This document shows, piece after piece, positions 21,869 to 44,367 of a DNA stretch of 64,000 nucleotides; the first letter of the stretch is position 1; each line of letters begins with the position of its first letter. This DNA comes from Lobosporangium transversale. Its lineage: Eukaryota; Mortierellomycota; Mortierellomycetes; Mortierellales; Mortierellaceae. The position numbers and the translations under genes were made by a program. Below the pieces are notes generated by a model that saw nothing but the letters and a program-made list of their open reading frames with translations, was not told the origin of the DNA and searched no databases. The stretch spans positions 1 to 64,000 of the forward strand of contig NW_019029019.1 in assembly GCF_002105155.1 (NCBI RefSeq). The letters are read 5' to 3'.

Positions 21869-23904
21869 ATTTCCTGGTACCACGTCGACCTCATTGCGGA
21901 TTGCTCATACCATCCAGAATAAGGTAAGTTGTGTATTGTTCTAAAAAATGAGTGAGAGTTTTCTAGAGTCATTGCCGGCCCCTCTGAATTCTTTCTGCAT
22001 TTGCTAGAATAGCTATATTGATCCATTCGTAGAGGAGGATGCCTTGTCCAGTCCGTCTATGTGGGCCTTGTCATCAAATTTAAAGGGAAAGCGGGCCGCC
22101 ACTGGATCTTTACAGACCACAAACAAGGAGAGGAGCAATATGACTTTGTCAAGGGACGAGTATGCCGGCGTTGAAGAGAGTCTGGACAGTACTGAGACCA
22201 CAGATAAGCATGGTGATGCAAGCGATGTGGCTGTTGTGGACCGACCGAAAATTATCTCAGAAGCATGCTCATTGATACAAAAGGAAAATGGGGTAGAGTA
22301 CGCGCAGGTGCTGTATTTGGCCCCCACTGATCTGTGAGGTCCTTGATTAAACATCTTTCATTATAGGAACAATAGTGCCCTTCAAATATCAAAACAAAAA
22401 ATGTGACATTTCGACTATTGCGTTCGCCTAAAAATGGCAAATGGCAAATTTTTGTTTTGATATTTGAAGGGCGCTAATCCGTGTCTCTCCCACCAACCAG
22501 AGTGCTACTGAGACACAGCAGGACGTCAAAGTCGGGTATTGCTCCAATTACTGCAAGGCATGGTGGCCATCAACCCCCAGAGCATGATGTCAATGATGGA
22601 GCCAGAACACCACCACGTAATGTTCAGGGATACTGTGAGGAGATTCCTCTTGCAAAAGAGTAAGTGGGATCCTCTTTAGATCTTGAGTTTATACGACTGC
22701 CGCACAATCTCTAACTCATGGCTTCCGTCTCAATATTTTCATAGCCTTGAGGCTGTTTTTAGACACGTTGGTATCTCCGAAAATTTCCTACTACGTGAGG
22801 CTGACCAACGTCTATAAGACGATGCCAGCAAATGGTTCAAGGCAAAGAATTAAGACATCAACTGAACTGACGATAGCTGAGATGAGAACGACACGTTTCC
22901 AAGAAGATTGGATTCACGATCTGCTCTACTACAGGTAACGGTCCGTTCTTTGGTATTTATAACGTATTCGACATGTGCGCAGTACGTTATTGATTATTGT
23001 TCTTACCGTCATCATCAATAGACTGATACTCCTACGTGCAGGACTCAACCCAAATGTCGACGAAAACACATACACCTCGTTTTGGGTCTCACCTGATTTT
23101 TTCGCTCTTCAGACCAGCGTACAAGGTCTCATCAGCTCTGGTTTCGTCAATGAATCCCATTTTGGGCCTTCTGCTTGGCGCCGTTCCCTCGCAAGAGGCA
23201 CACAGTCGTCGAAAGGTACGAATGTGGATGCGTACTTCATCGGAAGGGATGATTATGTGGACGTAATTTTCGAGAACATCAGTCCCCCTTCCTGTACCAA
23301 CCATTCAAAACACCATGATGACAAAGAAAAAACATGGCGCAATGCCGTGGATGCCTTACTAGAAAGATACTACAATTCGTCCGGTTCCTTCGAAATTGCC
23401 AAGGGCTACAAGATCGTATGCGTCATTGTGTTTGGTAAGTTATCTTGATACTGTTGCATTTGGATCTTGCGCTTGGCATCGACTAACATATAGTTTGATG
23501 ATGCGCCTACTCTATTCCAGGTTATGATATCTCGATCTACACCGTCAGCATATTGGACAGGAACGAGTATCTAGTGCAGAAGGTATTCCAGGACAAGTGT
23601 CATGTCCGTCGAGATGTATATCTTTCCAAGTTACTTGTGCATTTGAAGATTTGTCTTGCAATTAAGGTATGTTTATTGTTTACCGCTCTCACTCACACTA
23701 TCTTTGTTACATTGTTTCTGATCCTGAACTTTGTGACCTACAGCACAGACTATTATGGAGGACAACTGGGATGTCTGTGTCGAGTTTGACAATTCCATCG
23801 AGTCTACTGTGAAGGAAGAACAAGGACATTTTAACATGAAAATTCATACCACTTCTATGAAGGCTCAAATCTCGCCTACGAAGAACAGAAGATTACCAAT
23901 ATAA
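21869..23904 (+). pseudogene. Decayed multi-exon gene of unassigned fungal family
   Basis: Recognisable exons on the plus strand: about 21869-21922 (ends at GTAAGT), about 22009-22310 (IDPFVEEDALSSPSMWAL...), about 22500-22661, about 22745-22934 (ends RTTRFQEDWIHDLLYYR), about 23041-23432, 23521-23667 and 23743-23904, with plausible GT-AG signals between most. The exon near 22745 needs a stop (TAA after EADQRL) and a frame change to stay open, so this copy looks dead. The 23041-23432 part contains TNVDAYF...DVIFENIS, a D...E-x-S spacing like that of some nuclease folds; this is weak. The ending (QISPTKNRRLPI, TAA 23902-23904) is basic. I recall similar proteins among Mortierella accessory genes but cannot name a function. 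Confidence 0.4.
22374..22475. mobile_element. MITE-like element with 24-bp perfect terminal inverted repeats
   Basis: A perfect 24-bp inverted repeat (starting GCCCTTCAAATATCAA at 22377, returning at 22449-22472) encloses 48 bases. After one mismatch it extends for AG...CT, giving a 102-bp element flanked by AAT at 22371-22373 and 22476-22478. It is non-coding and lies where an intron of the decayed gene would be. A 3-bp target duplication would suit Harbinger-like or CACTA-like elements; the assignment is tentative. A related end (TTTGAAGGGCG) occurs near 27124 and, mirrored, near 35960. Confidence 0.65.
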
Positions 23905-24289
23905 GTCGAGGCTCTGCATCAATACCGCAAGGTCTTCAGCATGAAGAAGGAACTAGAGTCTTGTATCAGTAGTTATATCAACTTGTCATCAAATAAACTG
24001 ATTGCTCGCATGGATTAACGTGACTCTGAGACCTTGATGGTGCCACGAAATGCATGAAAAGATTGCTATCACGATCCAGTTAGATACCCTTAAGATACAA
24101 GAGTTGTTGGCAGTTCCGTGGTTGTGCATTTGACTTTGTTCTTTATCGCCTTTTGTTCATACTTGCCCCTGATTATCCACAGAATTGGCACTGAGTGTTC
24201 ATACGCCATTATAGTCTTATTAATTTAGGGCTATCACTTTGGATGGATTTCTTATCCATCGAACCCTCCCTTATTGCTCCTGTAACACT
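23905..24289. other. No gene seen
   Basis: Short spacer between the decayed gene and the orphan NACHT-WD40 tail. It may be the eroded upstream part of that receptor, but I see no WD40 motif in it. Confidence 0.4.
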
Positions 24290-24666
24290 TGTTCGTAGTA
24301 CGTGGGATTACTGGCGCCATGTCAAGCCACACAGACAGACGTTTTCTTAATGCGAGCAACGCTTGTATTCAAAATGTGGCTGGATTGAGTGAAACCAGCA
24401 GGAAGCTTTTAGAGCAACATGGAACCATAGCCAAGCAATCTCCGTCTTTAGTCAAACATGAGGAGTCCAAACAGATTCTGACGGCATCATCAGTGGCATT
24501 CAAGCCTAGAGCAGCCCTCAGTCAGGTGGATTGCTGTCAAAATTCATCAACAGAGGCGCTCTTAGGGACAGTAGTTTTGAGTGAGGGGCTACCATCGGTA
24601 GCAGTGATAAGGTCAATTAGATCGACCAAAGACTACCAGTTCAAATACAGAGGTGGCGTGCAATAA
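24290..24666 (+). pseudogene. Orphan C-terminal tail of a NACHT-WD40 receptor
   Basis: From about 24300 the plus strand encodes a segment homologous to the last roughly 110 residues of the receptor at 46634-52796. Shared landmarks are LNAS, a following IQ-V-GL, RKLLEQ-G-I, ILTAS/IMTAS, LSQ/FSQ, EALLGT/EAILET, EGLPS/EGVPL and a terminal FKY. The part before LNAS is in another frame (one-base shift near 24335). No NACHT domain or WD40 repeat precedes it, so it is a remnant. Its stop (24664-24666) lies 42 bp outside the left edge of the giant inverted repeat, and a short, diverged echo of this edge is visible near 38440-38475 beyond the right arm. Confidence 0.7.
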
Positions 24667-25165
24667 GTGAAGAGAGAGATGACCAAGAGAGGCAGGTAAA
24701 GAAGTTTGAGAGAAGCGGAAGAGAAGTGACCAAGTAAGACCAAGAGGTGAAGAAAGAAGCGATAAAGTCCATTCAGCTTTACAGAACATTATTGCAGCGG
24801 ATCCACTTCTTGGTCCAAAGCCTCATGAAACAAAAACAAAAATACATAAAGGACTATTTTCTTTTTCTACAATCAATGCAATGAGACAGGAGTGAACAAA
24901 TGGCAATTGCATGCTAATTAAACATTTAGCGATGATGGTGAAGAAGATTCAGGAAGGTTAGACCTGAGTTTAGTGCTTTGATTTCTTTTGCCACCAATGT
25001 TAGACGAGAAGTGGATAGGCAACTTGGTATGTAATTTTTTTTTTTTTTTTTTCTTTTTCATCCGCAGTCAATTGTTGTGAGTTGTAATCAAAAATGGCTT
25101 GACGGTGTGAAATATCTAATAAACATGGTGCAATGCTGCGATACTGTCTACCTTTTCTATCGCAA

Positions 25166-25240
25166 TCCTAATAATCCTAACAATCCTGACAATCCCGACC
25201 ACCCTGACAATCCTGACAATCCTGACAATCCTGACAATGC
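25166..25240 (+). repeat. 9-bp tandem repeat (AATCCTGAC), mirrored at 37852-37926
   Basis: About eight imperfect units of AATCCTGAC or close variants. The copy in the other arm has the same units in the same order. Confidence 0.8.
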
Positions 25241-26276
25241 AGTTCCTCAAAGCAGTAAGACAGGCAAGACAATGTGTTTCTCGGGATAGCTTTGTTTAAG
25301 GTTGCGACTACGCACATCTACATCTCTGCGTCATAGTGCAGTAAAATATATTCACCCCACTCCGCCCACTCTCTGCTCTCTTTGTTGTCTTGCAATCTTA
25401 CCAAAACAAGCAAACAAACAAACTCTGTTGGTATGAGAGCACAGACCACGCAGCAAAGAGCTGCAAACGAAAATAAAAATAAAAAGAGCCAGGATGCTGT
25501 TGATTGTCAAAGGCAGATGGGATTGTAGCCAGATGGATGCTTGTTGGATATTTCAGAGGATGAAGAGAAATTAAATGGGTTTTCATTCAATAGCATTAGA
25601 GGGGAAATGGGACTGCACTTTGTTGAAAAAAGATGAAAAAACCTCCAAATTGCGAAGCGCTTTTCATACGGAAAAAAGGTCCCACAATCGATCGACCATG
25701 TCAAAGGTTGGTGACAGATGAAAGAAAGCAAGCCACTAGGTCCTGACAACGTATAAAAAGGCCTCTCTTTCCTTTCTCTTTTGAATCTGTAACGGTGTAA
25801 CGGCCTCCAAAGCGTTGAGTTAGTGCGCTCGAGAGTACTAGCCAATGTCCAACGGACTCCATTTGCAGCCTGCAGGACGCTGTAGGTTGGATGGCGGGTT
25901 GGGCCCTGCGACGGGCGTGTCGGTAGACTGCTCTAGGGTTTATGGACCGGGGGGCGCGCAACCAGACCACCTCCACGTGGTGCGCCCTGGGCTGTCTGCT
26001 TCGCGGCAGACAGGCGAAGAGTCTGGTGTCTTTTTGTTATTTATTTATGCACAACTACCCATCAACACTCTACTGCCCATTATGGGTGTCAAAATGGAAA
26101 TAAAAAAAAGATCTTTCTGGCATCGTCATGTTTATATGGCAATGGTGACTTCATAATGAGAAAGCCGCAGCTTTTATTGTCCTTTCTCTAGAGTCCAAGT
26201 CTTTGTCGCAAGGCCAGCATGGGATCTCCTTTTTCTGCCCACTTTCTTAGACCTGCAGAACTGTGTATCGAGCTCG

Positions 26277-26328
26277 TTGTCTTGTCTCGTTTGTCTTGTC
26301 TCGTTTGTCTTGTCTCGTTTGTCTTGTC
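26277..26328 (+). repeat. 14-bp tandem repeat (TTGTCTTGTCTCGT), mirrored at 36764-36815
   Basis: Three complete units and one partial unit. Present identically in both arms. Confidence 0.85.
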
Positions 26329-27732
26329 TTGGCAAGTGCGCCACCAAATTGAAACATCTGCACTCATCAATAACATCTTCAGCCTTGTTCAGGCGATTTT
26401 TTCTTAAAGTCATTGAATGGGCGCCCCCATTTCAACAATGCCATCGCAACATGCATCTTCAGCCATTGACCATTTCTGAATTAGTCCAATTACCTGAAAA
26501 CATGAGCATTCTTGTTGACGAAAAATATTACAGAAATTGTCAACGTGTCTGTAAGGTTTTCCACATTGCTTTGCCATGGCTCTTATCATTATAGTCTTTG
26601 ATCAAGTACCACGTATCATACCATCTCGACGAATGCCTACCATTGCCAGGGTGTGGCTCTTCAGATCATACAGACCATAGCACTGTCGAGTTTGTTCATC
26701 TGACTTACTCATCTAACCAAGTTCCATAGCCCCATACGACAGACTGAATGTTCCTTCAATGACCGAGACTCATAGTTACCCTTGGGATTGGAGCTTTGGA
26801 GAGTCCCTATATTATCACCTTGCGTGCGATAAATAAAACTGGTCTGTACTTGCTGCTTTGTATCAGTTTGAAGTAAATGTCTTTGAGCGACACAAGTATC
26901 TTTACTCTATTCTGCATATGGCCAAAGACCGTATCACTTCGCAGGCCTCTTAATCCTTAATCAACGGCGCTTGTTGGGGGATACTAGCTCGAAAGTGTCT
27001 AAAGTTGCAGAGCTTACATCCCAATCCTCATAGCTGCAGGGCCAACGGTGAAGACGACAGGGCAGTATCTACAGAATGGAGCTCCTTCAATATTCATGTG
27101 CATTTCCGTGTCTGAAGGGTTTAAATTTGAAGGGCGTCTTATCAAGCAGTGAAGAGATGGCAGTTATCCTGGGACACACAAAATCGTGGACGATGTTAGG
27201 ATTAAGCAGGACTTTCTCAGCTTGATTAGATAAACTATCAGAACCGAAAGACCTAGAACATCTAAAAATCCAGCCATGATCGTCGTGGAGCGGAAGGACT
27301 TGAAGAAGCGATATGGATTGTAGAGCAATGGCTTAGGATCAACGAACCGAGACCACATAGAAATTCTGCTTGGTAAAAGAATGTGGTGTCTTCGGTAAGA
27401 GAAAAAAAAAAAAAAAACTACAATAGAATAAAAAATAGATGCATTTATTGAGCATATCGTGGTCTTTAGTAACCGTCGAGTTTTGGAGGGAAACTGTGTT
27501 TGCTCTCCTATAGTCTCTCATGAAGCCCAAGCACGCGATCGCTTAAGTTTTGGGTTATGAATAGCTGAATGGATGTATATAAAACTACTTTGCGTCCGAT
27601 TCAGATATCTGACAGACAACTTGAGACGAAAGATCAAGAAATGCCTCTCAAGAATGTCTTCAAGATGTCGCCCACGAAGCAACTGCCGCAGTGAAAGGCT
27701 TCTGCAAAAGGATCTAGTCTTGAGAGACACAC

Positions 27733-30700
27733 ATGAAGCTTTGGAAGGCATATATTTTCTCACTCTTGTCATGCGGTGGCGAAGATTTTAAGAAAAAGGA
27801 TGCATATGTTACTCAAAAGAGAAATGAGGGAGCCTTGCATTCTGTCCTCATCCATCCAAGTACCACCGACATGGCGGAACATCAATACCAACAATTTCGA
27901 AGGGCTGGCATTATTGAGAGAGTTTGTGTCAGAATTGCTTCTACCTTTGCAAACAATGGCAGCTCGTCCTGCCATGTGAGTCTGCAAGACATTCGAGACG
28001 TGTTTCCAGATGCACAACGATTCAAACTGGAAGGACTTCCCATTCCATTCCTCATAGACCCTAATGGGAACAGGTGTGTTACTGATTATGGAGCGCTTTA
28101 ACAATTATCTTTGGAATATAAACGAAAAAACTCAATCTAGCATATTCTGTCTTCTTATCAGAGTCGAGCCACCATGCATTGCATTCTATCCTTACAAGAT
28201 TCTGGATGTCATTACAGAAGCGCCGCAGTTAGGAAACAGCAATAGCAGCAGCAGCAGCACTGAAGCTAGCAGTACCAACGTCAGCAGCACCAACACCAAC
28301 ACCAACACCAACACCAACACCAACACCAACACCAACACCAACACCAACGCCAACACCAACACCAGCACAAATACCAACACCGACAATACCAACTGCAGCT
28401 GCATTAGCAACAGCAATCACAGCACCGCCATCCACTTGCCTACATTGAGAAAGTCAGCAAAGTATGGGCGGGATACTCCTTCACCATTATCAAACTTGAT
28501 TCAATCTTTCAATTCACTCCTTACTACTCGCAACAATGCACATATCGAGGCGGTCAACTTTAACCTTGTGAAGGTTGCGGATTTGCTCTTGGAGGCCGAA
28601 GAGAAGGACGACAAGGTGGCTAATATGCTTTTGGAAACCAAAGAAAAGGACAGCGAGCTGTTTGAACTGAAAGATAAGGTGCTTAGTCTGGTATTGGAAA
28701 CCAAAGAGAAGGACAGCGAGATGTTTAAACTACAAGAGAAGATGCTTAAACTGCAAGAGGAGATGCTTAAACTGCAAGAGGAGATGCTTAAACTGCAAGA
28801 GGAGATGCTTAAACTGCAATTGGAAGCTACGGAGAAGAATGAAGAAATGCAGCATCAAAGCCTCAACAAACTTGCCCTGCTTCTACAGCATGTTGATGCT
28901 ATTCTCACCCAGAATACCGGACTTCACGAATATCTATTTCCCCGACTATTTATCATTTTACCTGTCGACCACACCAAGTGGGACCCAATGAATGTCTTGA
29001 AGAACAAGTTCCGTGTTCATTTCCTATGTGAATGTGGAGACCACGCTACAATGGCAAGCAAGAGTAGTCAGAGTCAACTCCATATTGTCAATCATGATGG
29101 GTACGAGATCCGAGACAGCGCGGGATTCTTCCGCAAGTATGGAAAGTACATGTTCATCCTCTTACAGTGGTTCAAGCTAGGAATGTCTTCGTCTGCATCT
29201 CTGGCACTATCCCCAGATTCGATAGATGCCGGTATCGATTGTTCAATCGACTATATGGAAGCACTCTCTAAAGAGGACCCAGCTTTGAGCAACATTGCTA
29301 CAATCGATGACTATGATGGACCGAAAGGATCTGATTTTCAAAATGTGAGGACATTCCTTCGAATCAATGATGAAGGCAGGAAATTCGGGGATTTGTACAG
29401 GATCATGACCGAAACAGGCCGGGTCAAATGGGTTTGTCTCGAACACTGTCGCTCGATGTATGAAGAAAAAGGACAGAAGGCATTTATAAATGCAGTGAAA
29501 GTGAATAATGGCGAATATAACTGGCATCTTGGTAAAGTAACTATCACATTGGGGTACAGAGAGGGAGCTAAAGAGCTCTTCGATGCACTAACCAGTTCAA
29601 GACGAGTTTACGAGTTGGATATCACATTTGGCTGGGATTGGACGGAGATTGATCTTGAAGCATTTGAGAATGCTTTGGCAGTGTCGAGTGTATCGAATCT
29701 TCGACTTGGCCTTGTACCGACCGACATAAAAGTATCCACAACGTCTGCGCGATATGAAAGCCTTATTCGCATTATAGAGCTCAGTAATATGAAAACAATC
29801 CATATTACTCTAACTCAGGACCACATAAAGCTTCTCAGTTTACGGCCCAGAAGATCGTCATGTCTTCAAAAGCTGACGTATGAGGTGAAGGCTCAATGGA
29901 TTGGAGTCATTGAATTACAAGGACTTGTAAATTCACTCAAGACTGGCGCGCCATTGACGATTTTGAACTTGCGTGACGGCTCAATCAAGGATGAAGGGGC
30001 TCTGGCACTGTCAGAGGTACTCAAGGTTAATACTAGTTTGACGACTTTGGACTTGGGTTACAACTCAGTTGGGGATGTAGGGGCTCAGGCATTGTCAGAG
30101 GCACTCAAGGCTAATGCAACACTAGCAACTTTGGACTTGTGGGACAACTCGATCGAAAAGGAAGGAGCTCTGGCATTGTCAGAGGCACTCAAGGTTAATA
30201 CTAGTTTGGCGACTTTGAACTTGGGTTACAACTCAATTGGGGATGAAGGAGCTCTGGCATTGTCAGAGGCACTCAAGGCTAATGCAACACTAACAACTTT
30301 GGACTTGTGGGACAACTCGATCGAAAAGGAAGGCGCTCAGGCATTGTCAGAGACGCTCGAAGTCAATGCAACTTTAACGACCTTGACCTTGGGCAACAAC
30401 AGAATTCGAAAGGAAGGAGCTCTGGCATTGTCAGAGGCACTCAAGGTTAATACTAATTTGTCGACTTTGGCCTTGGATGGCACCTCGATTGGAAAGGAAG
30501 AAGCTCTGGCATTGTCAGAGGCACTCAAGGCTAATGCAACACTAACAACTTTGGACTTGTGGGACAACTCGATCGAAAAGGAAGGCGCTCAGGCATTGTC
30601 AGAGACGCTCGAAGTCAATGCAACTTTAACGACCTTGACCTTGGGCAACAACAGAATTCGAAAGGAAGGAGCTCTGGCATTGTCAGAGGCACTCAAGGTT

Positions 30701-31033
30701 AATACTAGTTTGACGACATTGGCCTTGTGGTACAACTCAATTGGGGATGAAGGAGCTCTGGCATTGTCAGAGGCGCTCAAGATTAACACTAGTTTGACGA
30801 CATTGGACTTGGGCAACAATGGAATTCGAAAGGAAGGAGCTCTGGCATTGTCAGAGGCACTCAAGATTAATACTAGTTTGGCGACTTTGAACTTGCGTAG
30901 CAACTCAATTGTGGATGAAGGAGCTCTGGCATTGTCAGAGGCGCTCAAGATTAACACTAGTTTGACGACATTGGACTTGGAGCCCAACTCAATTGGACAA
31001 TTTCAGAAGCACTCAAGGAAAACGCAGTTTTAA
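27733..31033 (+). CDS. RNI-type leucine-rich-repeat protein, left-arm copy
   Basis: Exons 27733-28073 and 28162-31033 (88-bp intron, phase 2), 1070 aa, starting at ATG 27733. Layout: an N-terminal module (about 80-140: DVFPDAQRF...FLIDPNG...IAFYPYKILDVI); a Thr-Asn repeat from a hexanucleotide array (about 155-186); a coiled coil with 7-residue repeats (KLQEEML, about 245-350); a conserved middle region (FPRLFIILP...FLCECGDH...FFRKYGKYMF); and from about 711 twelve complete 28-residue LRRs of ribonuclease-inhibitor type (LTTLDLxxNSIxxEGALALSEALK). LRR arrays of this kind bind proteins; no enzymatic domain is seen. Relative to the other arm it has five fewer LRRs, units 8-9 repeat units 5-6, and a 13-bp net deletion at the 3' end changes the last residues. 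I recall the family from Mortierella; its role is not established. Confidence 0.8.
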
Positions 31034-31617
31034 CTCAATAAATAAGAGCGTCTTAAGCGTCAAATAAGGGACACTGATGCTGTTAGGCACACCCAGGACT
31101 GACTGACCGACTTTGGATCTTTTTTTGGGATACTTGATTGGTTGATGGTTGAAATAGCTCTAGAATAGTTAAAGAAAATAGTTTGGTTTAAATAAAAGGC
31201 TTGCTTGTAGCGGCCAAGCGGCCATGACAGCGTTGGCTTTTAATCCTTTGATGTCAGCTCTTCCCCTTTGAAAGCTCATTCCTTATAATGACAGCACATC
31301 AATATCAGTTCAGTGGAAGATTCGTACAAAGCTTTCTCCAATGTTAAGCTACGTAGAGCATAGTTACAAAATGTAAAGACGGTAAATTGTTCTCCCTTAG
31401 AACAGGGACTTCAATCAAGTCAGTTGAGGGAGCCCAAAGAAAAGATTGTCGCTTGGCTGCTACAAGCAAGGTTTTTATTTAAACCAAACTATTTTCTTTA
31501 ACTATTCTAGAGCTATTTCAACCATCAATCAACCAAGTATCCCAAAAGTCGGCCAGGCAGTCCTGAGTATGTCCAACAGCATCAGTGTCCCTTATTTGAC
31601 GCTTAAGACGCTCTTAT
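31034..31617. other. Centre of the giant inverted repeat (spacer about 226 bp)
   Basis: The two LRR genes converge here. About 190 bp beyond each stop is still homologous between arms but visibly diverged. The unique centre is about 31223-31448. No gene, transposase fragment or strong hairpin is seen in it. Confidence 0.7.
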
Positions 31618-34600
31618 TTATTGAGTAAAAATTGCGTTTTCCTTGAGTGCTTCTGAAATTGCCAGATCTGCTTCCCCAATTAAGTTGTACCACAAGGCCA
31701 ATGTCGTCAAACTAGTGTTAACCTTGAGTGCCTCTGACAATGCCTGAGCTCCTTCCTTTTGAATTCTGTTGTTGCTCAAGCTCAATGTCGTCAAACTAGT
31801 GTTAACCTTGAGTGCCTCTGACAATGCCTGAGCTCCTTCATCCCCAATTGAGTTGTACCACAAGGCCAATGTCGTCAAACTAGTGTTAACCTTGAGTGCC
31901 TCTGACAATGCCAGAGCTCCTTCCTTTCCAATCGAGTTGCCACCCAAGGTCAAATCTGTTAAAGTTGCATTGGCCTTGAGCGCCTCTGACAATGCCAGAG
32001 CTCCTTCATCCCCAATTGAGTTGCTACGCAAGTTCAAAGTCGTCAAACTGGTATTAACCTTGAGTGCCTCTGACAATACCAGAGCTCCTTCCTTTTGAAT
32101 TCTGTTGTTGCCCAACTCCAATGTCGTCAAACTAGTGTTAATCTTGAGTGCCTTTGCCAATGCCAGAGCTCCCTCATCCCCAATTGAGTTGTACCACAAG
32201 TCCAATGTCGTCAAAGTAGTGTTAACTTTGAGTGCCTCTGACAATGCCAGAGCTTCTTCCTTTTCGATCGAGCTGTGGCACAAGTTCAAAGTCGTTAATG
32301 TTGCATTAGCCTTGAGTGCCTCTGACAATGCCTGAGCTCCTTCCTTTCCGATCGAGCTCTCATTCAAGTCCAATGTTGTCAAACTAGTGTTAACCTTGAG
32401 TGCTTCTGACAATGCCAGAGCTTCTTCCTTTTCGATCGAGTTGTGACACAAGATCAAAGTCGTTAATGTTGCATTAGCCTTGAGTGCCTCTGACAATGCC
32501 TGAGCTCCTTCCTTTTGAATTCTGTTGTTGCTCAAGTCCAATGTCGTCAAACTAGTGTTAACCTTGAGTGCCTCTGACAATGCCAGAGCTTCTTCCTTTC
32601 CAATCGAGGTGCCATCCAAGGCCAAAGTCGACAAATTAGTATTAACCTTGAGTGCCTCTGACAATGCCAGAGCTCCTTCCTTTCGAATTCTGTTGTTGCC
32701 CAAGGTCAAGGTCGTTAAAGTTGCATTGACTTCGAGCGTCTCTGACAATGCCTGAGCGCCTTCCTTTTCGATCGAGTTGTCCCACAAGTCCAAAGTTGTT
32801 AGTGTTGCATTAGCCTTGAGTGCCTCTGACAATGCCAGAGCTCCTTCATCCCCAATTGAGTTGTAACCCAAGTTCAAAGTCGCCAAACTAGTATTAACCT
32901 TGAGTGCCTCTGACAATGCCAGAGCTCCTTCCTTTTCGATCGAGTTGTCCCACAAGTCCAAAGTTGCTAGTGTTGCATTAGCCTTGAGTGCCTCTGACAA
33001 TGCCTGAGCCCCTACATCCCCAACTGAGTTGTAACCCAAGTCCAAAGTCGTCAAACTAGTATTAACCTTGAGTACCTCTGACAGTGCCAGAGCCCCTTCA
33101 TCCTTGATTGAGCCGTCACGCAAGTTCAAAATCGTCAATGGCGCGCCAGTCTTGAGTGAATTTACAAGTCCTTGTAATTCAATGACTCCAATCCATTGAG
33201 CCTTCACCTCATACGTCAGCTTTTGAAGACATGACGATCTTCTGGGCCGTAAACTGAGAAGCTTTATGTGGTCCTGAGTTAGAGTAATATGGATTGTTTT
33301 CATATTACTGAGCTCTATAATGCGAATAAGGCTTTCATATCGCGCAGACGTTGTGGATACTTTTATGTCGGTCGGTACAAGGCCAAGTCGAAGATTCGAT
33401 ACACTCGACACTGCCAAAGCATTCTCAAATGCTTCAAGATCAATCTCCGTCCAATCCCAGCCAAATGTGATATCCAACTCGTAAACTCGTCTTGAACTGG
33501 TTAGTGCATCGAAGAGCTCTTTAGCTCCCTCTCTGTACCCCAATGTGATAGTTACTTTACCAAGATGCCAGTTATATTCGCCATTATTCACTTTCACTGC
33601 ATTTATAAATGCCTTCTGTCCTTTTTCTTCATACATCGAGCGACAGTGTTCGAGACAAACCCATTTGACCCGGCCTGTTTCGGTCATGATCCTGTACAAA
33701 TCCCCGAATTTCCTGCCTTCATCATTGATTCGAAGGAATGTCCTCACATTTTGAAAATCAGATCCTTTCGGTCCATCATAGTCATCGATTGTAGCAATGT
33801 TGCTCAAAGCTGGGTCCTCTTTAGAGAGTGCTTCCATATAGTCGATTGAACAATCGATACCGGCATCTATCGAATCTGGGGATAGTGCCAGAGATGCAGA
33901 CGAAGACATTCCTAGCTTGAACCACTGTAAGAGGATGAACATGTACTTTCCATACTTGCGGAAGAATCCCGCGCTGTCTCGGATCTCGTACCCATCATGA
34001 TTGACAATATGGAGTTGACTCTGACTACTCTTGCTTGCCATTGTAGCGTGGTCTCCACATTCACATAGGAAATGAACACGGAACTTGTTCTTCAAGACAT
34101 TCATTGGGTCCCACTTGGTGTGGTCGACAGGTAAAATGATAAATAGTCGGGGAAATAGATATTCGTGAAGTCCGGTATTCTGGGTGAGAATAGCATCAAC
34201 ATGCTGTAGAAGCAGGGCAAGTTTGTTGAGGCTTTGATGCTGCATTTCTTCATTCTTCTCCGTAGCTTCCAATTGCAGTTTAAGCATCTCCTCTTGCAGT
34301 TTAAGCATCTCCTCTTGCAGTTTAAGCATCTCCTCTTGCAGTTTAAGCATCTTCTCTTGTAGTTTAAACATCTCGCTGTCCTTCTCTTTGGTTTCCAATA
34401 CCAGACTAAGCACCTTATCTTTCAGTTCAAACAGCTCGCTGTCCTTTTCTTTGGTTTCCAAAAGCATATTAGCCACCTTGTCGTCCTTCTCTTCGGCCTC
34501 CAAGAGCAAATCCGCAACCTTCACAAGGTTAAAGTTGACCGCCTCGATATGTGCATTGTTGCGAGTAGTAAGGAGTGAATTGAAAGATTGAATCAAGTTT

Positions 34601-35359
34601 GATAATGGTGAAGGAGTATCCCGCCCATACTTTGCTGACTTTCTCAATGTAGGCAAGTGGATGGCGGTGCTGTGATTGCTGTTGCTAATGCAGCTGCAGT
34701 TGGTATTGTCGGTGTTGGTATTTGTGCTGGTGTTGGTGTTGGCGTTGGTGTTGGTGTTGGTGTTGGTGTTGGTGTTGGTGTTGGTGTTGGTGTTGGTGTT
34801 GGTGCTGCTGACGTTGGTACTGCTAGCTTCAGTGCTGCTGCTGCTGCTATTGCTGTTTCCTAACTGCGGCGCTTCTGTAATGACATCCAGAATCTTGTAA
34901 GGATAGAATGCAATGCATGGTGGCTCGACTCTGATAAGAAGACAGAATATGCTAGATTGAGTTTTTTCGTTTATATTCCAAAGATAATTGTTAAAGCGCT
35001 CCATAATCAGTAACACACCTGTTCCCATTAGGGTCTATGAGGAATGGAATGGGAAGTCCTTCCAGTTTGAATCGTTGTGCATCTGGAAACACGTCTCGAA
35101 TGTCTTGCAGACTCACATGGCAGGACGAGCTGCCATTGTTTGCAAAGGTAGAAGCAATTCTGACACAAACTCTCTCAATAATGCCAGCCCTTCGAAATTG
35201 TTGGTATTGATGTTCCGCCATGTCGGTGGTACTTGGATGGATGAGGACAGAATGCAAGGCTCCCTCATTTCTCTTTTGAGTAACATATGCATCCTTTTTC
35301 TTAAAATCTTCGCCACCGCATGACAAGAGTGAGAAAATATATGCCTTCCAAAGCTTCAT
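31618..35359 (-). CDS. RNI-type leucine-rich-repeat protein, right-arm copy
   Basis: Exons (minus strand) 35359-35019 and 34930-31618, same 88-bp intron, 1217 aa. The N-terminal module, Thr-Asn repeat, coiled coil, middle region and first six LRRs, plus most of the seventh, are identical to the left-arm protein. After that this copy has its own series, with signatures such as LCHNSIEKEE, LNESSIGKEG and LGGNSIGKEG, for seventeen complete LRRs and a capping unit ending ISEALKENAIFTQ. That end reads as an intact cap, whereas the left copy is shifted there. Solvent-exposed positions of each LRR (LxxLxLxxNxI) carry most of the differences, as expected of a recognition surface. The gene converges with its twin. 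I consider it the more complete of the pair. Confidence 0.8.
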
Positions 35360-38300
35360 GTGTGTCTCTCAAGACTAGATCCTTTTGCAGAAGCCTTTCA
35401 CTGCGGCAGTTGCTTCGTGGGCGACATCTTGAAGACATTCTTGAGAGGCATTTCTTGATCTTTCGTCTCAAGTTGTCTGTCAGATATCTGAATCGGACGC
35501 AAAGTAGTTTTATATACATCCATTCAGCTATTCATAACCCAAAACTTAAGCGATCGCGTGCTTGGGCTTCATGAGAGACTATAGGAGAGCAAACACAGTT
35601 TCCCTCCAAAACTCGACGGTTACTAAAGACCACGATATGCTCAATAAATGCATCTATTTTTTATTCTATTGTAGTTTTTTTTTTTTTTTTCTCTTACCGA
35701 AGACACCACATTCTTTTACCAAGCAGAATTTCTATGTGGTCTCGGTTCGTTGATCCTAAGCCATTGCTCTACAATCCATATCGCTTCTTCAAGTCCTTCC
35801 GCTCCACGACGATCATGGCTGGATTTTTAGATGTTCTAGGTCTTTCGGTTCTGATAGTTTATCTAATCAAGCTGAGAAAGTCCTGCTTAATCCTAACATC
35901 GTCCACGATTTTGTGTGTCCCAGGATAACTGCCATCTCTTCACTGCTTGATAAGACGCCCTTCAAATTTAAACCCTTCAGACACGGAAATGCACATGAAT
36001 ATTGAAGGAGCTCCATTCTGTAGATACTGCCCTGTCGTCTTCACCGTTGGCCCTGCAGCTATGAGGATTGGGATGTAAGCTCTGCAACTTTAGACACTTT
36101 CGAGCTAGTATCCCCCAACAAGCGCCGTTGATTAAGGATTAAGAGGCCTGCGAAGTGATACGGTCTTTGGCCATATGCAGAATAGAGTAAAGATACTTGT
36201 GTCGCTCAAAGACATTTACTTCAAACTGATACAAAGCAGCAAGTACAGACCAGTTTTATTTATCGCACGCAAGGTGATAATATAGGGACTCTCCAAAGCT
36301 CCAATCCCAAGGGTAACTATGAGTCTCGGTCATTGAAGGAACATTCAGTCTGTCGTATGGGGCTATGGAACTTGGTTAGATGAGTAAGTCAGATGAACAA
36401 ACTCGACAGTGCTATGGTCTGTATGATCTGAAGAGCCACACCCTGGCAATGGTAGGCATTCGTCGAGATGGTATGATACGTGGTACTTGATCAAAGACTA
36501 TAATGATAAGAGCCATGGCAAAGCAATGTGGAAAACCTTACAGACACGTTGACAATTTCTGTAATATTTTTCGTCAACAAGAATGCTCATGTTTTCAGGT
36601 AATTGGACTAATTCAGAAATGGTCAATGGCTGAAGATGCATGTTGCGATGGCATTGTTGAAATGGGGGCGCCCATTCAATGACTTTAAGAAAAAATCGCC
36701 TGAACAAGGCTGAAGATGTTATTGATGAGTGCAGATGTTTCAATTTGGTGGCGCACTTGCCAAGACAAGACAAACGAGACAAGACAAACGAGACAAGACA
36801 AACGAGACAAGACAACGAGCTCGATACACAGTTCTGCAGGTCTAAGAAAGTGGGCAGAAAAAGGAGATCCCATGCTGGCCTTGCGACAAAGACTTGGACT
36901 CTAGAGAAAGGACAATAAAAGCTGCGGCTTTCTCATTATGAAGTCACCATTGCCATATAAACATGACGATGCCAGAAAGATCTTTTTTTTATTTCCATTT
37001 TGACACCCATAATGGGCAGTAGAGTGTTGATGGGTAGTTGTGCATAAATAAATAACAAAAAGACACCAGACTCTTCGCCTGTCTGCCGCGAAGCAGACAG
37101 CCCAGGGCGCACCACGTGGAGGTGGTCTGGTTGCGCGCCCCCCGGTCCATAAACCCTAGAGCAGTCTACCGACACGCCCGTCGCAGGGCCCAACCCGCCA
37201 TCCAACCTACAGCGTCCTGCAGGCTGCAAATGGAGTCCGTTGGACATTGGCTAGTACTCTCGAGCGCACTAACTCAACGCTTTGGAGGCCGTTACACCGT
37301 TACAGATTCAAAAGAGAAAGGAAAGAGAGGCCTTTTTATACGTTGTCAGGACCTAGTGGCTTGCTTTCTTTCATCTGTCACCAACCTTTGACATGGTCGA
37401 TCGATTGTGGGACCTTTTTTCCGTATGAAAAGCGCTTCGCAATTTGGAGGTTTTTTCATCTTTTTTCAACAAAGTGCAGTCCCATTTCCCCTCTAATGCT
37501 ATTGAATGAAAACCCATTTAATTTCTCTTCATCCTCTGAAATATCCAACAAGCATCCATCTGGCTACAATCCCATCTGCCTTTGACAATCAACAGCATCC
37601 TGGCTCTTTTTATTTTTATTTTCGTTTGCAGCTCTTTGCTGCGTGGTCTGTGCTCTCATACCAACAGAGTTTGTTTGTTTGCTTGTTTTGGTAAGATTGC
37701 AAGACAACAAAGAGAGCAGAGAGTGGGCGGAGTGGGGTGAATATATTTTACTGCACTATGACGCAGAGATGTAGATGTGCGTAGTCGCAACCTTAAACAA
37801 AGCTATCCCGAGAAACACATTGTCTTGCCTGTCTTACTGCTTTGAGGAACTGCATTGTCAGGATTGTCAGGATTGTCAGGATTGTCAGGGTGGTCGGGAT
37901 TGTCAGGATTGTTAGGATTATTAGGATTGCGATAGAAAAGGTAGACAGTATCGCAGCATTGCACCATGTTTATTAGATATTTCACACCGTCAAGCCATTT
38001 TTGATTACAACTCACAACAATTGACTGCGGATGAAAAAGAAAAAAAAAAAAAAAAAATTACATACCAAGTTGCCTATCCACTTCTCGTCTAACATTGGTG
38101 GCAAAAGAAATCAAAGCACTAAACTCAGGTCTAATCTTCCTGAACCTTCTTCACCATCATCGCTAAATGTTTAATTAGCATGCAATTGCCATTTGTTCAC
38201 TCCTGTCTCATTGCATTGATTGTAGAAAAAGAAAATAGTCCTTTATGTATTTTTGTTTTTGTTTCATGAGGCTTTGGACCAAGAAGTGGATCCGCTGCAA

Positions 38301-38384
38301 TAATGTTCTGTAAAGCTGAATGGACTTTATCGCTTCTTTCTTCACCTCTTGGTCTTACTTGGTCACTTCTCTTCCGCTTCTCTC
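35360..38384. other. Right-arm DNA upstream of the LRR gene
   Basis: Mirror image of 24709-27732 with the same tandem repeats, GC-rich block and F-box-like fragment. No additional gene. The T-tract at 35676-35690 mirrors the A-tract of the left arm. Confidence 0.5.
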
Positions 38385-38430
38385 TCGCTTCTCTCTCGCT
38401 TCTCTCTCGCTTCTCTCTCGCTTCTTGATC
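38378..38430 (+). repeat. Tandem repeat (TTCTCTCTCGC) at the right edge of the inverted repeat
   Basis: About five units of 11 bp. The equivalent place in the left arm (about 24700) has a single unit, so arm homology stops within this array. Confidence 0.8.
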
Positions 38431-38719
38431 TGTCTCTCTTAACCACCTCTCTCTTCACTTCTTGCACGCCGCCTCTCTACAACCAATCCGCGACGAGTCC
38501 CAGTAAGACATCTCCGCTGCCAAAGTAATGCCGCCATAAGTTCGTATACTATATATTTATAATTGGAAGACCTTACTACCAATGCCAGAACTAAACATCA
38601 AAGTGTCCATGGATCCTGCAGTTATCTCCCATATCTTTGTTCATATCCCTCACTTTTAGCACAGAGGGTGAGCGCTAGAAAAAACACAGCCTACTGAAGC
38701 TGCTACGTCAAAGCAGCAG

Positions 38720-39030
38720 CATGAGCTGATTAGTATCGTAATTCCTTTTATGTATCGTCCAAAGGATGATTACCTGCACGGGATATTTAATGCGATGGAA
38801 GTAAACGAAAAATCACCAGCTCAGCTCCTATTAGATGTGTTCAATTCGGATAATCAGACCATTGAAGAAGTATTCAGAGCTTTTACAAAAACAAAGGCCT
38901 GCCTCCATAGTCAGGATCTGGGCCTTGCGATTAAAACCCGAAGGGGCTTACAATGGATATGGCGATTTCTCTGAGGCCGGAAAGATATTGTTGTTGAGGA
39001 TGCAAAAAGCGAGCTCAAGGAGCTTACTTG
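38720..39030 (+). pseudogene. Fragment of an unassigned accessory gene
   Basis: A readable segment (FMYRPKDDYLHGIFNAMEV...PAQLLLDVF...LHSQDLGLAI, then PEGAYNGYGDFSEAGK, then VVEDAKSELKEL) continues only by changing frame twice, near 38935 and 38985, and then meets a stop. It looks like the end of a once-coding sequence. I do not recognise the family. Confidence 0.35.
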
Positions 39031-41624
39031 AGTCGACGACCTGAGGCTCCCAACCAACAATCTGTTCCCCACAGTGGTTCAGAAAATATCATTAAGTTAC
39101 TGCTAAACCCTCCACTCCAACCCCTCTATCAGCCTACTTTGGACCACAGCCTCCTCCACAATAAGGGGTAAAGCCCATAAATATCACGCTATTGCTAACA
39201 TAGATCCTGTACATTAATTGCCCAATTGTTCGGGCAGAGTTGCGGCCAAAATGTAGATATTTGGAGCTTGAATTCTCCCCTTTAGATATACAGATATCGG
39301 TAGTAGACGCTGAGGAGCCAAGCGTTGGCTCTCAATAAACCCCTCTTCTTTATCCATCTAAAGACTGAAATGGCCATAACCCTGTGCTTGCTCTTCATAG
39401 CTGTTTATTTTAGCAGTTGTCTTGCTTAAATTAACCGCAACATGAAATGTCTATTGAAGACGTAAAAAAAGTAACGAGAGGTCATTGTGACGTTATCAGA
39501 CCTTTATTTAAGTTGCTTACTCTCATGTTCCTGTCTTCTGTTTTCAACGACCTTCTCAGAACCAAAATTTGATTGCAGCATTGCAATTACATGACTCGTA
39601 TCTGCATTCCGTGCAATAGTGGCAACCATGACAAACAGCCCTTAAATACAAGGTCTGTTTTTATTTGTTTTACCTTTTTATGAATATTATTATTTTTTAT
39701 TAACCCTCCATCGCTGTTGCTGATAGCGGGCCTAAACGAGGACATGTGGCATTTGTGATCGCTCAGGACACAACTGAAGCACATGTCCAGGCAATGAAGG
39801 GTGAGTTCCATATTCAATATTTCAATTGTGTCATCATCGCTAATACATTTTTATTAATCCTAAACTTTTATTCTCTGTTGCAATGGCATAGTTAGTGTCC
39901 CCTGTAAGCGAATCGAGCCTATGGCGGTCTGCAGGCGGAGTGTTAACCTTGGCCGCCTTGGTGAAAGTGAAAGACCTGTGTGAAGGCGAAGGTAAACTAA
40001 TCTTTTGTTTACATTCTATTATACTTTCAATCTTTGTGGTGTGATTGTATATATTTATTTAGGGTCTGTCAAAGACAGATAATAGGATTGCAAGGTACGG
40101 TAAGTGTGGCAGGAACTTGGATAAAGGTATATGGGTAGTTTTTATTACAGGCTGAGGTTTTCTGTATTAAATGGCGATGGCGTTTGTACTTCTACGTCCT
40201 TGAGCTGAATTGCACACATATTATATTAACTATTGATAACTACCAGTATACAGGGTTGCCAATAAACACCTAAGCACCTCAGCATTGCCTTTAAGATTAC
40301 GATCACCCATAAGTATGGTAAAATGCGCTGTCCTCGTAACAGAAGCCCTAGAGGGACGATCGACCAAAGCAATGATGGGGTTTCTAAACCTATTTTTGCT
40401 AGTGTTCATTTAAATAAAGCCTTGTGTTAGGAGACCCTTACGAGGGTCTGTTATACAGTTCAATGTTATCAAGCATGTCACTGACTCTTGATCCTTGTAT
40501 ATAAAGCCCTATTGCTTATCTTCTGCTTTGTAGACATGATGGCTTGTTCGGTAGATGATAAGTAAGAGGAAGTGTATATATGTATATATATATATATACT
40601 ATAGCTGAATTTTTCAAGCAGTATTGGTTAGTTCAGAAAGTGACATTGTCTTCGACCGGTGGAAGCGGAGAATGGTTTATCTCGTATATAAAATAAAAGA
40701 GAGCAAAAAGGAGGATTCATTGTCTACATTTACACCACCAATAGAAGCAAGGGACGACATACCTTTCTGGCTCATGATTCCCGCGCGGTGTTTTTTTTTT
40801 TTTTTTTTTTTTGTTAAATGTAAACAACATTATGGCTAGCCATTTACTCGGAGATCTCCTTCCTAAAAGCGTGCTCAAAAAGACCTAGCATGGACAAAGG
40901 TCGATCATTCTATCAAAAGTTTTTTTTTTTTTTGATTTCGTCCATCAAACAAATATAAAAAAGAAAAGATGGATTGATCCAAGAGTCCGTGGCAAAAAGT
41001 TTAAAAAAAAAAAAAAGAGAGAGATGGACTTAATCAGTTTTTTAAGAAAAAATTTTTAACAGATTGCTCGTACTCGAGTGAAAGCAGCCAAAAACCGATT
41101 GGAACAATGCATTCCGCAATTACAACGAAAAAGGCCTAGAGGGGCCATGCTCTTTAGCCTGGATATGGTAACACATCTAGTCCAGTGAGTAAAGTAAACA
41201 GAAACTCTGCTCTTGAAAAAGTATGTTTGCCATAGAATAAAGAAAAAATTAGACCCCGATCTGATAGGGACATAATATACATGTTAATAATGCGTCAATA
41301 ATCTATCCACGTCCAGGGCCATCATCATAAACAATTGTTACTGCATGCATGCGTACATCCATGTGCATTTGCTAGTCTATAATTCATACCTTATGATTTG
41401 AGCAAGGGTATGGACAATGCAACAATGTCCGACAAGGGCAGAGCGGCGTTGCAATACTGTGGCTGCTCGCTTACTTACTTGTTGTATGCATGTTCATGTA
41501 TATATTCTTTTATATTATTTTATTTTAATTTTTTTTCTTATCGAAAATGAATATAAAGCGCTCATGAACATCTCTCTTCATTTTGCTCTTGCATCCTCTT
41601 TACGTTTCTTCTCTTTGGTCGTAT

Positions 41625-41781: not shown

Positions 41782-44367
41782 ATGATCTCTATTTCAACCC
41801 TCATTATCAGCGCCTGTCTGGCTGTGTTCTCAGTATGGTTATTTGCAGATTACTTTATTCTCTGGAGAGCAAAGATAAAGTCACATTTTGTTTGGAACGA
41901 GATGGACATTTACTGGTCCCTTGTCTGTTTGCTACCTATCCTATTGGGTCACTTCATCACCATCTGGGGGAACTACTTCCGCGCAACGAACCATTTCCAG
42001 CATTCAATCTCAAAAGTCACCACTCCTGCAACAGAGAAGCAGCGCATCTCGTTCTGGGAGCGCCATGATTCATACTTTGGGTACACGACCAAGTTTTGGT
42101 GGCTGGTCGGTCTGGTCGTCACAATGAACATTTACTGGTTCATCCTGACAACGGTCCTGAGCAGGGATGCGTACGTCGAGACCTATGGTTATATCCAGGG
42201 CAATCTCCGTTCCATCGCCTATGGTAGTTCTCAAGCTGTACTGCTTGATACATCCCTCATCCTCTTCCTGGTGCTCCGTCGGTCGATGCTTCATGCCCTC
42301 GGCTTTACTTATCCAGAGATTATCCCTCTCCATCGTTGGCTTGGTGTTTCCATGCTTGTCTGGTCTACAATCCATGTAGCATTTTATAGCGCCTGGCTGA
42401 TCATGGAAGGCAAGTTTGTCAGCGACATTGCATTCACTGATAAGTCCCGTGGTACCCGCAACATGCCTGGAGTCTTTGCATGGGTATGTATCTCACTTTT
42501 TTTTTTTTTTTTTTTTTTTTTTTTCCGTATTGGGCTCCAACTTATTAATCCTGATCTGACTTTCTTCCCTTGCAAAATATACGAATTGGTGTTCACCTTG
42601 ATCCGCTAGATCGGAGTCGTTATAATGTCCTTCTTTGCGCTGCCCCAATTCCGTCGATGGGTTTATCCAGTCTTCGTCTACGTCCATCGGGCAGGCACTT
42701 TTGTTTTCTTCATTGGTCTCATTATGCATTACCCTTCGTACATGCTTTGGTACTACATGCTTCCAGGATTCATCCTCTTCCTTATCGACCGCTTCGTCCC
42801 TAGGATCATCCAAGCACGTACAATCGATCCCATGGCCACCTGTGCTCTTAACACTGACGCCGACATCATCCGTGTCAAGTTTACATCACCAGAACCCATG
42901 AAGCCATATTATCCCGGTGATTACATTACAGTTCAGATCCCTGGTATGGGCCAGATCTTTCATCCATTCACTATTGCCTCGTACTGGCCCGAGGACCCTT
43001 ACTCCATGACCCTGTATATGCGTGTCTTTAATGACTCCAAATGGAGCTGGACCAAGAAGCTTTCCGAACGCTGCGGTACGGATGACAGACCCATTCTGAT
43101 CCATACCAATGTCGAAGGTGTCTTTGGTGACCGTCGTCATGACTATCTCAAGTCTGAAACCATGGTCATCTTCGTTGCCGGCGCTGCCATCACAACCTTT
43201 ATGGCCTTGATCAAAGCCGTTGCTGCCCAAATAGCTGCTTCAAATGACCCGCTCCGCATGCAGCTTCACTTGGTTTGTACATTTCGCACCCGCAGTGAGC
43301 TCCATGCCTACGGGTCATTTTTGCATCAGATCACACGCGATCCTCGTTTTACCTCTTGGCTACATGTTCAAATATTTGTCTCTCGCCCTGACAAGCCCAA
43401 GACTCTGATGGGTGCCCATGCTTACGTTGTCAAGAACGATATCCAAGTTCCAAGCCAAATCAAGAAAAAAGATGGCAAGAATTTCCTCCAGCGTACCGGA
43501 ACCAGACTAAAGCGCGCTCTTTCGGGCCGTACTGCAGTCAATGCCCCCGCACCCATCATGACGTCTGTGGTAGTGGAGAATGCTGGCGAAAGTTTGGAGC
43601 GATTCAGCTCTGCAAAGCCCACTGCTGAAACACTAGACGACATGAAGAGAAATCCTTCAATTGCTGCTGTTATGATTGACCCTTCATCCATGTCTCCATC
43701 ATCTTCACCCTCAATCGAAATAAATCCCATTTCTGAAAAGCCCAGCAGAGCCATGACATACCATGACCAAGCTTTGCCAACGTTTCAGGCTTCGAATGCG
43801 GATGCAGTCTCCAAGAGGCTGGCCCTACTGGACCTCTTTACAAGTGCATTGTTAGTTCTTGTGCCCATGGCCTTTTACTATGGTATGCGTGCTGCCCGGT
43901 TCGAGGGCCAACCGCAATGGTGTCTAACTACCAAGAGCAAAGACAAGTGGACAATCTTTGTCTGCCATTGGACAAATGCCTTAGTCCCTGGTCTTGTTCA
44001 TACAATCGCCATGCTTGCTCTTGGCTACTTTGGCATTGCTGTAGCCAAGAAGATCCATATGCGTCACCACCAGTGTGCTTCTAACAACATCGCCAAGGAT
44101 ATTGAAATATCTGGGGCTCATTCCGAGAAGCAATCGGTTGAGGGCGGTAACTGGGATGAAGGAGATGTCGTCTACACACGAGGCCGTATGGATGTCCGTA
44201 AACAGATCCAAGCCCTGGTGGATCAGGGTGTGGGTATGAAAGAAAATGGAGAAGGGCTGACTACTGTCTTTGCTGGTGGGCCCGAGGGTTTTGTTAACAT
44301 GATTGAGAACCAGGTCAAGAAGGCAGCGTGGGTCGTCGATTTTAATCGTGAAACTTGGGCACCTTGA
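41782..44367 (+). CDS. Ferric-chelate reductase (FRE/NOX superfamily), copy B
   Basis: Exons 41782-42483 and 42610-44367, phase-0 intron of 126 bp with a long T-tract, 819 aa from ATG 41782. Predicted role as for copy A: NADPH to FAD to two haems to extracellular metal chelates. Haem ligands His184/His198 (HRWLG) and His260/His274 keep the H-x13-H spacing. The FAD motif HPFTIAS, the nucleotide-binding AGAAITTF and the C-terminal FAGGPEGF and ETWAP are present. It shares with copy A the long insertion with two hydrophobic segments in the NADPH half (LDLFTSALLVLVPMAFYY and LVPGLVHTIAMLALGYFGIA). Its single intron matches intron 2 of copy A; intron 1 of copy A is absent here. Linker and insertion sequences differ most between the two, so the duplication is old compared with the inverted repeats. 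Confidence 0.87.

What the first reader, a model, noticed from the sequence alone, without database searches (positions are those of the whole stretch)
24708..38384. 13.7-kb inverted repeat carrying twin LRR genes whose only large difference is the LRR array
Seen: arms of about 6.5 and 6.9 kb are apparently identical for their outer 5-6 kb, including the non-coding part, yet the LRR arrays hold 12 versus 17 complete units. Units 1-6 and most of 7 agree, then the order and sequence differ. Near-identity outside with rearranged 84-bp units inside is the pattern of a receptor-like gene whose recognition surface is reshuffled by unequal exchange, while conversion between arms keeps the rest equal. 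The diversification role is inference.
Basis: partly seen in the sequence, partly recalled or inferred. Interest (0 to 1): 0.78.

Follow-up and report, generated by a model that had tools for sequence, protein, structure and literature searches.

The report
Fungal LRR palindrome homogenised outside repeats
In the soil fungus Lobosporangium transversale, two mirror-image copies of a leucine-rich-repeat gene are almost letter-for-letter identical, apparently because one arm is copied over the other, except in the repeat region that may do the recognising, which differs between the twins; a second gene pair in the same genome has the same layout.

Summary
The arms differ at 2 of 5,823 positions (24708-30530 against 38384-32562), break sharply inside LRR unit 7, and the arrays have 12 and 17 complete units. 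The LRR is not the only difference: the short non-coding 3' flanks next to the centre differ at 13 of 203 positions plus an 11-bp gap.

The genome is Lobosporangium transversale. A second palindrome on contig C77 has the same gene pair, a homologous spacer, arms with 0 of 5,238 differences, and arrays differing by a net 252 bp (three units) plus a diverged last unit. Between the two palindromes, 211 of 3,385 outer columns group arms within a locus and 0 group same-side arms. In the inner flank a third, truncated copy groups the other way (10 same-side, 0 within, of 202). So the palindrome is old and outer arms were homogenised later at each locus; arm-to-arm gene conversion is the simplest cause.

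That the arrays are a diversifying recognition surface remains inference: strand positions 2, 4, 5 vary, but selection is not proven. Conversion here is not specific to LRR genes: two other palindromes and a NACHT-WD40 pair look similar.

The parts
24661..31220 (+). Left arm (A) of the palindrome; core 24708-30530 identical to the right arm but for 24947 and 24957
31450..38424 (-). Right arm (B); identical core 32562-38384
31221..31449 (.). Central spacer, homologous to the spacer of the C77 palindrome (163/183) and to that of the truncated copy at C64:157.8-158.1 kb (221/228)
27871..31033 (+). Gene A, exons 27871-28073 and 28162-31033 (1,024 aa): small N-terminal beta-rich domain, Asn/Thr-rich stretch, coiled coil, domain of unknown fold, LRR array; C-terminal cap frameshifted
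   Evidence: splice join inferred from homolog P0001; domains (the model is of P0001); cap
31618..35221 (-). Gene B, exons 35221-35019 and 34930-31618 (1,171 aa), tail-to-tail with gene A
29963..30970 (+). LRR array A, 12 complete 84-bp units; 252-bp-period duplication with identical run 30502-30707
31702..33129 (-). LRR array B, 17 complete 84-bp units
30530..30531 (+). Sharp end of arm identity inside unit 7 (mirror position 32562/32561)
31003..31220 (+). Inner 3' flank of A, diverged from that of B (31450-31669): 13/203 plus an 11-bp gap
24661..26366 (+). Dispersed ~1.7-kb repeat, also at C64:115.6-120.3 kb, C36, C52 and (diverged) C84; near-identical local pairs at C64, C64:115-120 kb, C36, C52 and C84:901-909 kb, where both copies were aligned

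Best explanation
This is an old tail-to-tail palindrome carrying two genes for LRR proteins. Its outer arms (promoter side, N-terminal half, first LRR units) are overwritten, one from the other, by gene conversion between the inverted copies. The tract ends in the LRR array, where the two arms no longer match in unit number and order. The short stretch between array and spacer escapes too and keeps its old A/B differences. The arrays themselves change by whole units, twice by a 252-bp (three-unit) step. Result: one constant gene body, two different LRR surfaces. Shown: shared ancestry of the palindrome centre, later homogenisation of the outer arms at two loci, whole-unit array change. Inferred: that the copying is ordinary gene conversion; that array mismatch is what stops it; that the arrays bind something and the diversity is useful (about 0.4).
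For: C64 arms 2/5,823 differences, inner flank 13/203 (Fisher p about 5e-18); C77 arms 0/5,238, inner flank 15/213 (p about 5e-22). C64 non-coding alone: 2/3,163. Spacer and both flanks of C64 and C77 align through the centre, 575 of 636 columns identical. Outer-arm quartet C64A, C64B, C77A, C77B over window 26400-29934: 211 within-locus, 0 same-side, 0 cross of 3,385 columns. Inner-flank quartet of C64 with the truncated copy: 10 same-side, 0 within, 0 cross of 202, plus an 11-bp deletion shared by both B flanks. P0001, from a second assembly (BX616 locus tags): its last 669 residues, coiled coil to LRR unit 10, equal C77B and not C77A.
Against: The C64/C77 inner-flank quartet alone does not show the expected side grouping: 6 within, 1 same-side, 0 cross, and C77 against the truncated copy gives 4 within, 1 same-side, 1 cross. 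So the argument that the palindrome is old rests on the shared centre and on the third copy, which keeps only one outer arm. The outermost 1.7 kb was not in the quartet because C77 has only patchy 73-78% matches there. Fisher tests treat linked sites as independent. Of five pairs with near-identical N-terminal halves that I profiled, C64, C77 and C84 differ in the array but the two C39 pairs do not, and C84 and one C39 pair are direct, not inverted. No reads, isolates or expression data.
Confidence: 0.82

Rival explanations
1. Generic local conversion only (not exclusive of the best explanation, but denies the role): close repeats in this genome are homogenised whatever they carry, and LRR arrays differ simply because tandem repeats slip and stop conversion tracts. 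No receptor diversification is involved.
For: The 1.7-kb repeat has within-locus pairs at 98.8-100% and between-locus identity of about 79-98%. The C64:115-120 kb and C52 palindromes, which show no match to the LRR gene upstream of its array (hits wholly inside the array were filtered out), share a centre (94.5%) yet have near-identical arms within each locus. The wider exposed LRR position set has pN/pS 0.86, below 1.
Against: Strand positions 2, 4, 5 have pN/pS 1.33 (C64A 1.48, C64B 1.61) against 0.37 for the rest; but C77A 0.79 and C77B 0.92 do not exceed 1, and the position sets were my choice.
Confidence: 0.45
2. Young palindrome: the arms are identical because the inverted duplication is recent, and LRR end plus 3' flank of one arm were later replaced from another paralog.
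For: Near-zero arm divergence; mosaics exist in the family.
Against: The centre is shared with C77 and with the truncated copy, whose A and B flanks match C64's A and B flanks respectively, including the 11-bp deletion; the A/B difference is older than that split.
Confidence: 0.08
3. Assembly artefact (missed hairpin adapter or a collapsed and duplicated contig).
For: No reads could be checked; arms are almost perfectly identical.
Against: The spacer is not mirror-symmetric, arrays and flanks differ, the same design occurs at C77 with about 6% divergence, and the C77B array is found unchanged through unit 10 in a second assembly. The C64 genes themselves were not found in that second assembly.
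Confidence: 0.04
4. A mobile element with long terminal inverted repeats that carries LRR genes.
For: The 1.7-kb repeat lies in inverted pairs facing inward around LRR genes at C64 and C84.
Against: The pairs face outward at C64:115-120 kb and C52 and are direct at C36. Transposase genes were not searched for, and the ends were only looked at by eye.
Confidence: 0.06

Closest known systems
Palindromes of mammalian sex chromosomes with arm-to-arm gene conversion (human Y P6; PMC3723533, abstract and section list seen)
   Same: Inverted arms of very high identity, multi-kilobase homogenised tracts
   Different: Here in a fungal contig, about 14 kb; homogenisation stops at a coding repeat array so that twin genes keep different ends
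Podospora anserina NWD/HNWD allorecognition genes (PMC1805685 passages; PMC2873952 abstract and section 9)
   Same: Repeat number changes by whole units, variable exposed positions, concerted evolution in a multigene family
   Different: There the WD repeats themselves are homogenised and exchanged and a NACHT domain is present; here the gene body is homogenised, the LRR ends are not, and no NACHT domain was found
Plant NB-LRR clusters (recalled)
   Same: LRR differences between near-identical paralogs through exchange
   Different: No NB-ARC domain found; tail-to-tail palindrome
Lamprey VLR genes (recalled)
   Same: LRR modules varied within a constant frame
   Different: VLR assembly is somatic and uses donor cassettes; no evidence of that was looked for or seen here

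Membership tests
Gene-converting palindrome | Long inverted arms with near-perfect identity and a spacer | tested here: met
Gene-converting palindrome | Arm identity younger than the palindrome (arms group within locus, centre shared between loci) | tested here: met
   211 against 0 sites in C64/C77 outer arms; 10 against 0 the other way in the inner flank with the third copy. The C64/C77 inner flank is not decisive (6 within, 1 same-side)
Gene-converting palindrome | Observed conversion events in a population | not testable with these tools
   no isolates or reads
Fungal NLR (NOD plus repeat domain) | NACHT or NB-ARC domain | tested here: not met
   no such Pfam match in genes A and B at E 0.1 or among the 14 families matched by the 44 members of A2 at E 0.01
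Ribonuclease-inhibitor-type LRR protein | 28-residue LRR units forming a horseshoe | tested here: met
   PF13516 E 5.5e-51 (A) and 5.1e-75 (B); model of homolog P0001 matches ribonuclease inhibitor 2bex_A, E 7.5e-14, and NLRP proteins
Podospora-type repeat diversification | Repeat-number polymorphism among isolates | not testable with these tools
   only one strain at hand; the two other BX616 proteins tested, P0008 and P0012, match this genome at 99-100%, suggesting the same or a near-identical strain
Podospora-type repeat diversification | Positive selection at exposed repeat positions | tested here: inconclusive
   pN/pS 1.33 at positions 2, 4, 5; 0.86 at the wider exposed set, bootstrap 0.77-0.97
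TIR transposon | Transposase and target-site duplication | not tested
   no transposase search was made; ends only looked at by eye

The most novel reading that the evidence does not exclude
The palindrome is a built-in diversification device: arm-to-arm conversion keeps a constant N-terminal half and promoter equal, while mismatch between the arrays shields two LRR ends from being overwritten and lets them change in multi-unit steps; occasional out-of-register copying moves the tract end and hands array pieces from one twin to the other. It would be a germline constant/variable gene layout for an LRR family in a kingdom where LRR receptors were reported almost absent.
Probability: 0.25. Interest if true: 0.75.

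Novelty: new variant of a known kind. Interest (0 to 1): 0.52.

Why it matters
Comparative studies reported LRR pattern-recognition receptors to be almost absent from fungi (PMC2939053, passages) and found no LRR motifs in fungal NLRs (PMC4986451, passages). Here is a large LRR family in a Mortierellomycete (57 of 146 listed genome matches score 350 bits or more, two of them with several stops; only the best candidates were scored), with tail-to-tail pairs in which the gene body is homogenised and the LRR end is not. Whether these proteins are receptors is unknown. The two palindromes are repeated natural experiments on how conversion can preserve one half of a gene while the other diversifies, and sequencing a few isolates would test it.

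Tried and rejected
Rejected or set low: a simple recent inverted duplication (shared centre, third copy); a hairpin-read artefact (asymmetric centre, second assembly); a terminal-inverted-repeat element (orientation differs between loci; transposase not searched); a pattern confined to inverted LRR pairs (the C84 pair is direct, and other palindromes and a NACHT-WD40 pair look alike). Rfam found nothing at its gathering scores in 22000-40000. Solved-structure sequences gave only four weak antibody light-chain hits (E 0.22 and up) for the N-terminal half. The model of the N-terminal half was weak (mean pLDDT 64.9) and most of its top 50 matches are LRR proteins, so the fold of the middle domain is unknown. 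Protein searches showed no second-assembly copy of the C64 genes among the rows listed (54, 120 of 897, 21).

Literature searches; I saw no listed title that describes LRR palindromes in Mortierellomycota. Seen: passages of PMC4986451, PMC1805685, PMC2939053, PMC10197012, PMC12258605; abstract and section list of PMC3723533; abstract, section list and section 9 of PMC2873952; other papers only as search listings.
Full report
WHAT IS THERE. The window is positions 1-64000 of contig C64 of a 42.7-Mb genome in 127 contigs. Contig C40 is 1,787,510 bp long, the contig length listed for several Lobosporangium transversale BCR41DRAFT proteins, so this is that Mortierellomycete. The palindrome runs from about 24661 to 38424. 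Its outer 5,823 bp differ at two positions; 3,163 of those bases are non-coding and hold both differences. Identity ends at 30530 inside LRR unit 7. The arrays have 12 (A) and 17 (B) complete 84-bp units, with units 1-6 identical. Past the arrays homology resumes: the 3' flanks next to the 229-bp spacer differ at 13 of 203 columns plus an 11-bp gap. Gene A also has a frameshifted last cap, as judged against the reading frame of the truncated copy.

A SECOND PALINDROME WITH THE SAME DESIGN. Contig C77:56871-68831 carries an inverted pair of the same genes. Its arms show 0 differences over 57002-62239 (5,238 bp), then a net 252-bp step (three units), then 108 further identical bases, then divergence in the last unit. 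Its arrays have 8 and 11 units. Its 3' flanks differ at 15 of 213 columns. From gene end to gene end, C64 and C77 align in the same orientation through the spacer with 575 of 636 aligned columns identical, so the centre is inherited from one ancestor.

THE TEST. If the palindrome is older than the split of the two loci, arms on the same side should group together unless they are homogenised. Over 3,385 ungapped columns (window 26400-29934 and its counterparts), 211 group arms within a locus, 0 group same-side arms and 0 are crossed. The outermost 1.7 kb could not be used because C77 has only patchy 73-78% matches there. The C64/C77 inner flank is not decisive by itself (6 within, 1 same-side, 0 cross of 203 columns). 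A third, truncated copy at C64:156579-158564 keeps the centre and both flanks. Against it C64 shows 10 same-side, 0 within and 0 cross of 202 columns, and both B flanks share the 11-bp deletion; C77 against it gives 4 within, 1 same-side, 1 cross. The C64 A/B difference is therefore older than the split from that copy, while the identity of its outer arms is younger than the A/B difference. Fisher tests give about 5e-18 (C64) and 5e-22 (C77) for outer against inner, with linked sites counted as independent.

ARRAY CHANGE. Array A repeats itself with a period of 252 bp over a 206-bp identical run (30502-30707), which spans the point where arm identity ends. The C77 arrays differ by a net 252 bp within otherwise identical sequence. 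Both are three-unit, in-frame steps. The remaining tail units of arrays A and B in C64 are more diverged: best matches 74-81 of 84, apart from unit A8, an exact copy of unit 5.

HOW GENERAL. I profiled five family pairs with near-identical N-terminal halves. C64, C77 (inverted) and C84 (direct) differ in the array and 3' part; C39 610/628 (inverted) and C39 604/656 (direct) have the same arrays over the part compared. Three further C40 comparisons are mosaics of near-100% patches and patches of about 74-95%. In the window itself a NACHT-WD40 pair with an upstream ARM-repeat gene is identical over 49911-52779 (2,869 bp) and drops to 63-88% per 100 columns outward, 39% in the last block. The 1.7-kb repeat 24661-26366 occurs in within-locus pairs at 98.8-100%, with about 79-98% between loci. 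Two palindromes at C64:115-120 kb and C52, with no match to the LRR gene upstream of its array (array-only hits filtered out), share a centre at 94.5% yet have near-identical arms. Homogenisation of close repeats is thus not confined to the LRR genes and is no proof of a receptor system. Two 10-kb control stretches had no self-match of 150 bp or more, a small control.

THE PROTEIN. Genes A and B have two exons, with splice sites inferred from homolog P0001. Pfam recognises only LRRs above its cut-offs. A model of P0001 (mean pLDDT 74.6) shows a small N-terminal beta-rich domain, a long coiled coil, a poorly predicted middle domain and a confident LRR horseshoe that matches ribonuclease inhibitor and NLRP proteins. 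No NACHT or NB-ARC domain was found, so it is not an NLR by definition, though it might work like one. In the genome 57 of 146 listed matches score 350 bits or more with the N-terminal part (my count, two of them with several stops, lower bound). Relatives are listed from Mortierella, Entomortierella, Gamsiella, Haplosporangium and Linnemannia among others.

SELECTION. Among 33 distinct units of the four arrays, positions 2, 4 and 5 (strand, exposed by the usual LRR model, recalled) have pN/pS 1.33, a wider exposed set 0.86 (bootstrap 0.77-0.97), the rest 0.37. By array (C64A, C64B, C77A, C77B), positions 2, 4, 5 give 1.48, 1.61, 0.79 and 0.92. This is suggestive only.

ASSEMBLY. P0001 comes from another assembly (BX616 locus tags). 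Its last 669 residues, from the coiled coil through most of LRR unit 10, equal C77B and not C77A. The two other BX616 proteins tested match this genome at 99-100%, so it is probably the same strain: support for the assembly, but no information on variation between isolates.

VERDICT.

Noticed in passing
window 46634-52796 (-) and 59520-63682 (+): Second inverted pair in the window: ARM-repeat gene plus NACHT-WD40 gene, identical over 49911-52779 (2,869 bp), then a sharp drop to 63-88% per 100 columns outward; the right copy is split over two ORFs near the window end.
   Followed up: partly
window 24661-26366; C64:115319-120568; C52:424073-436636; C36:537802-545736; C84: Dispersed ~1.7-kb repeat in near-identical local pairs, inverted at five places and direct at C36; one diverged copy at C84:159 kb had no partner in the 10 kb fetched. 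C52 forms a palindrome with 5.85-kb arms at 99.9% and no ORF of 150 aa or more in 422001-432000.
   Followed up: partly
C64:156579-158564 (L032): Truncated third copy of the palindrome centre with part of gene A, the spacer and the start of array B.
   Followed up: yes
window 25949-26044: GC-rich stretch matched at 87-92% at three places in C40 where the neighbouring sequence matches less or not; no Rfam match. Perhaps a non-coding RNA or short repeat.
   Followed up: no
window 24289-24666: ORF overlapping a 305-bp match (71%) to the C-terminal end of the NACHT-WD40 gene at 46.7-47.0 kb, next to the left end of the palindrome: perhaps a gene relic.
   Followed up: no
window 813-2570 (-) and 42625-44367 (+): Paralogous genes with FAD_binding_8 domains (ferric-reductase type) in opposite orientation, about 77% alike over 712 bp.
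   Followed up: no
C39:603001-608900 and 655218-661100: Direct duplication, essentially 100% over about 6 kb including part of an LRR gene, then fading through the next LRR gene to about 63-84%.
   Followed up: partly
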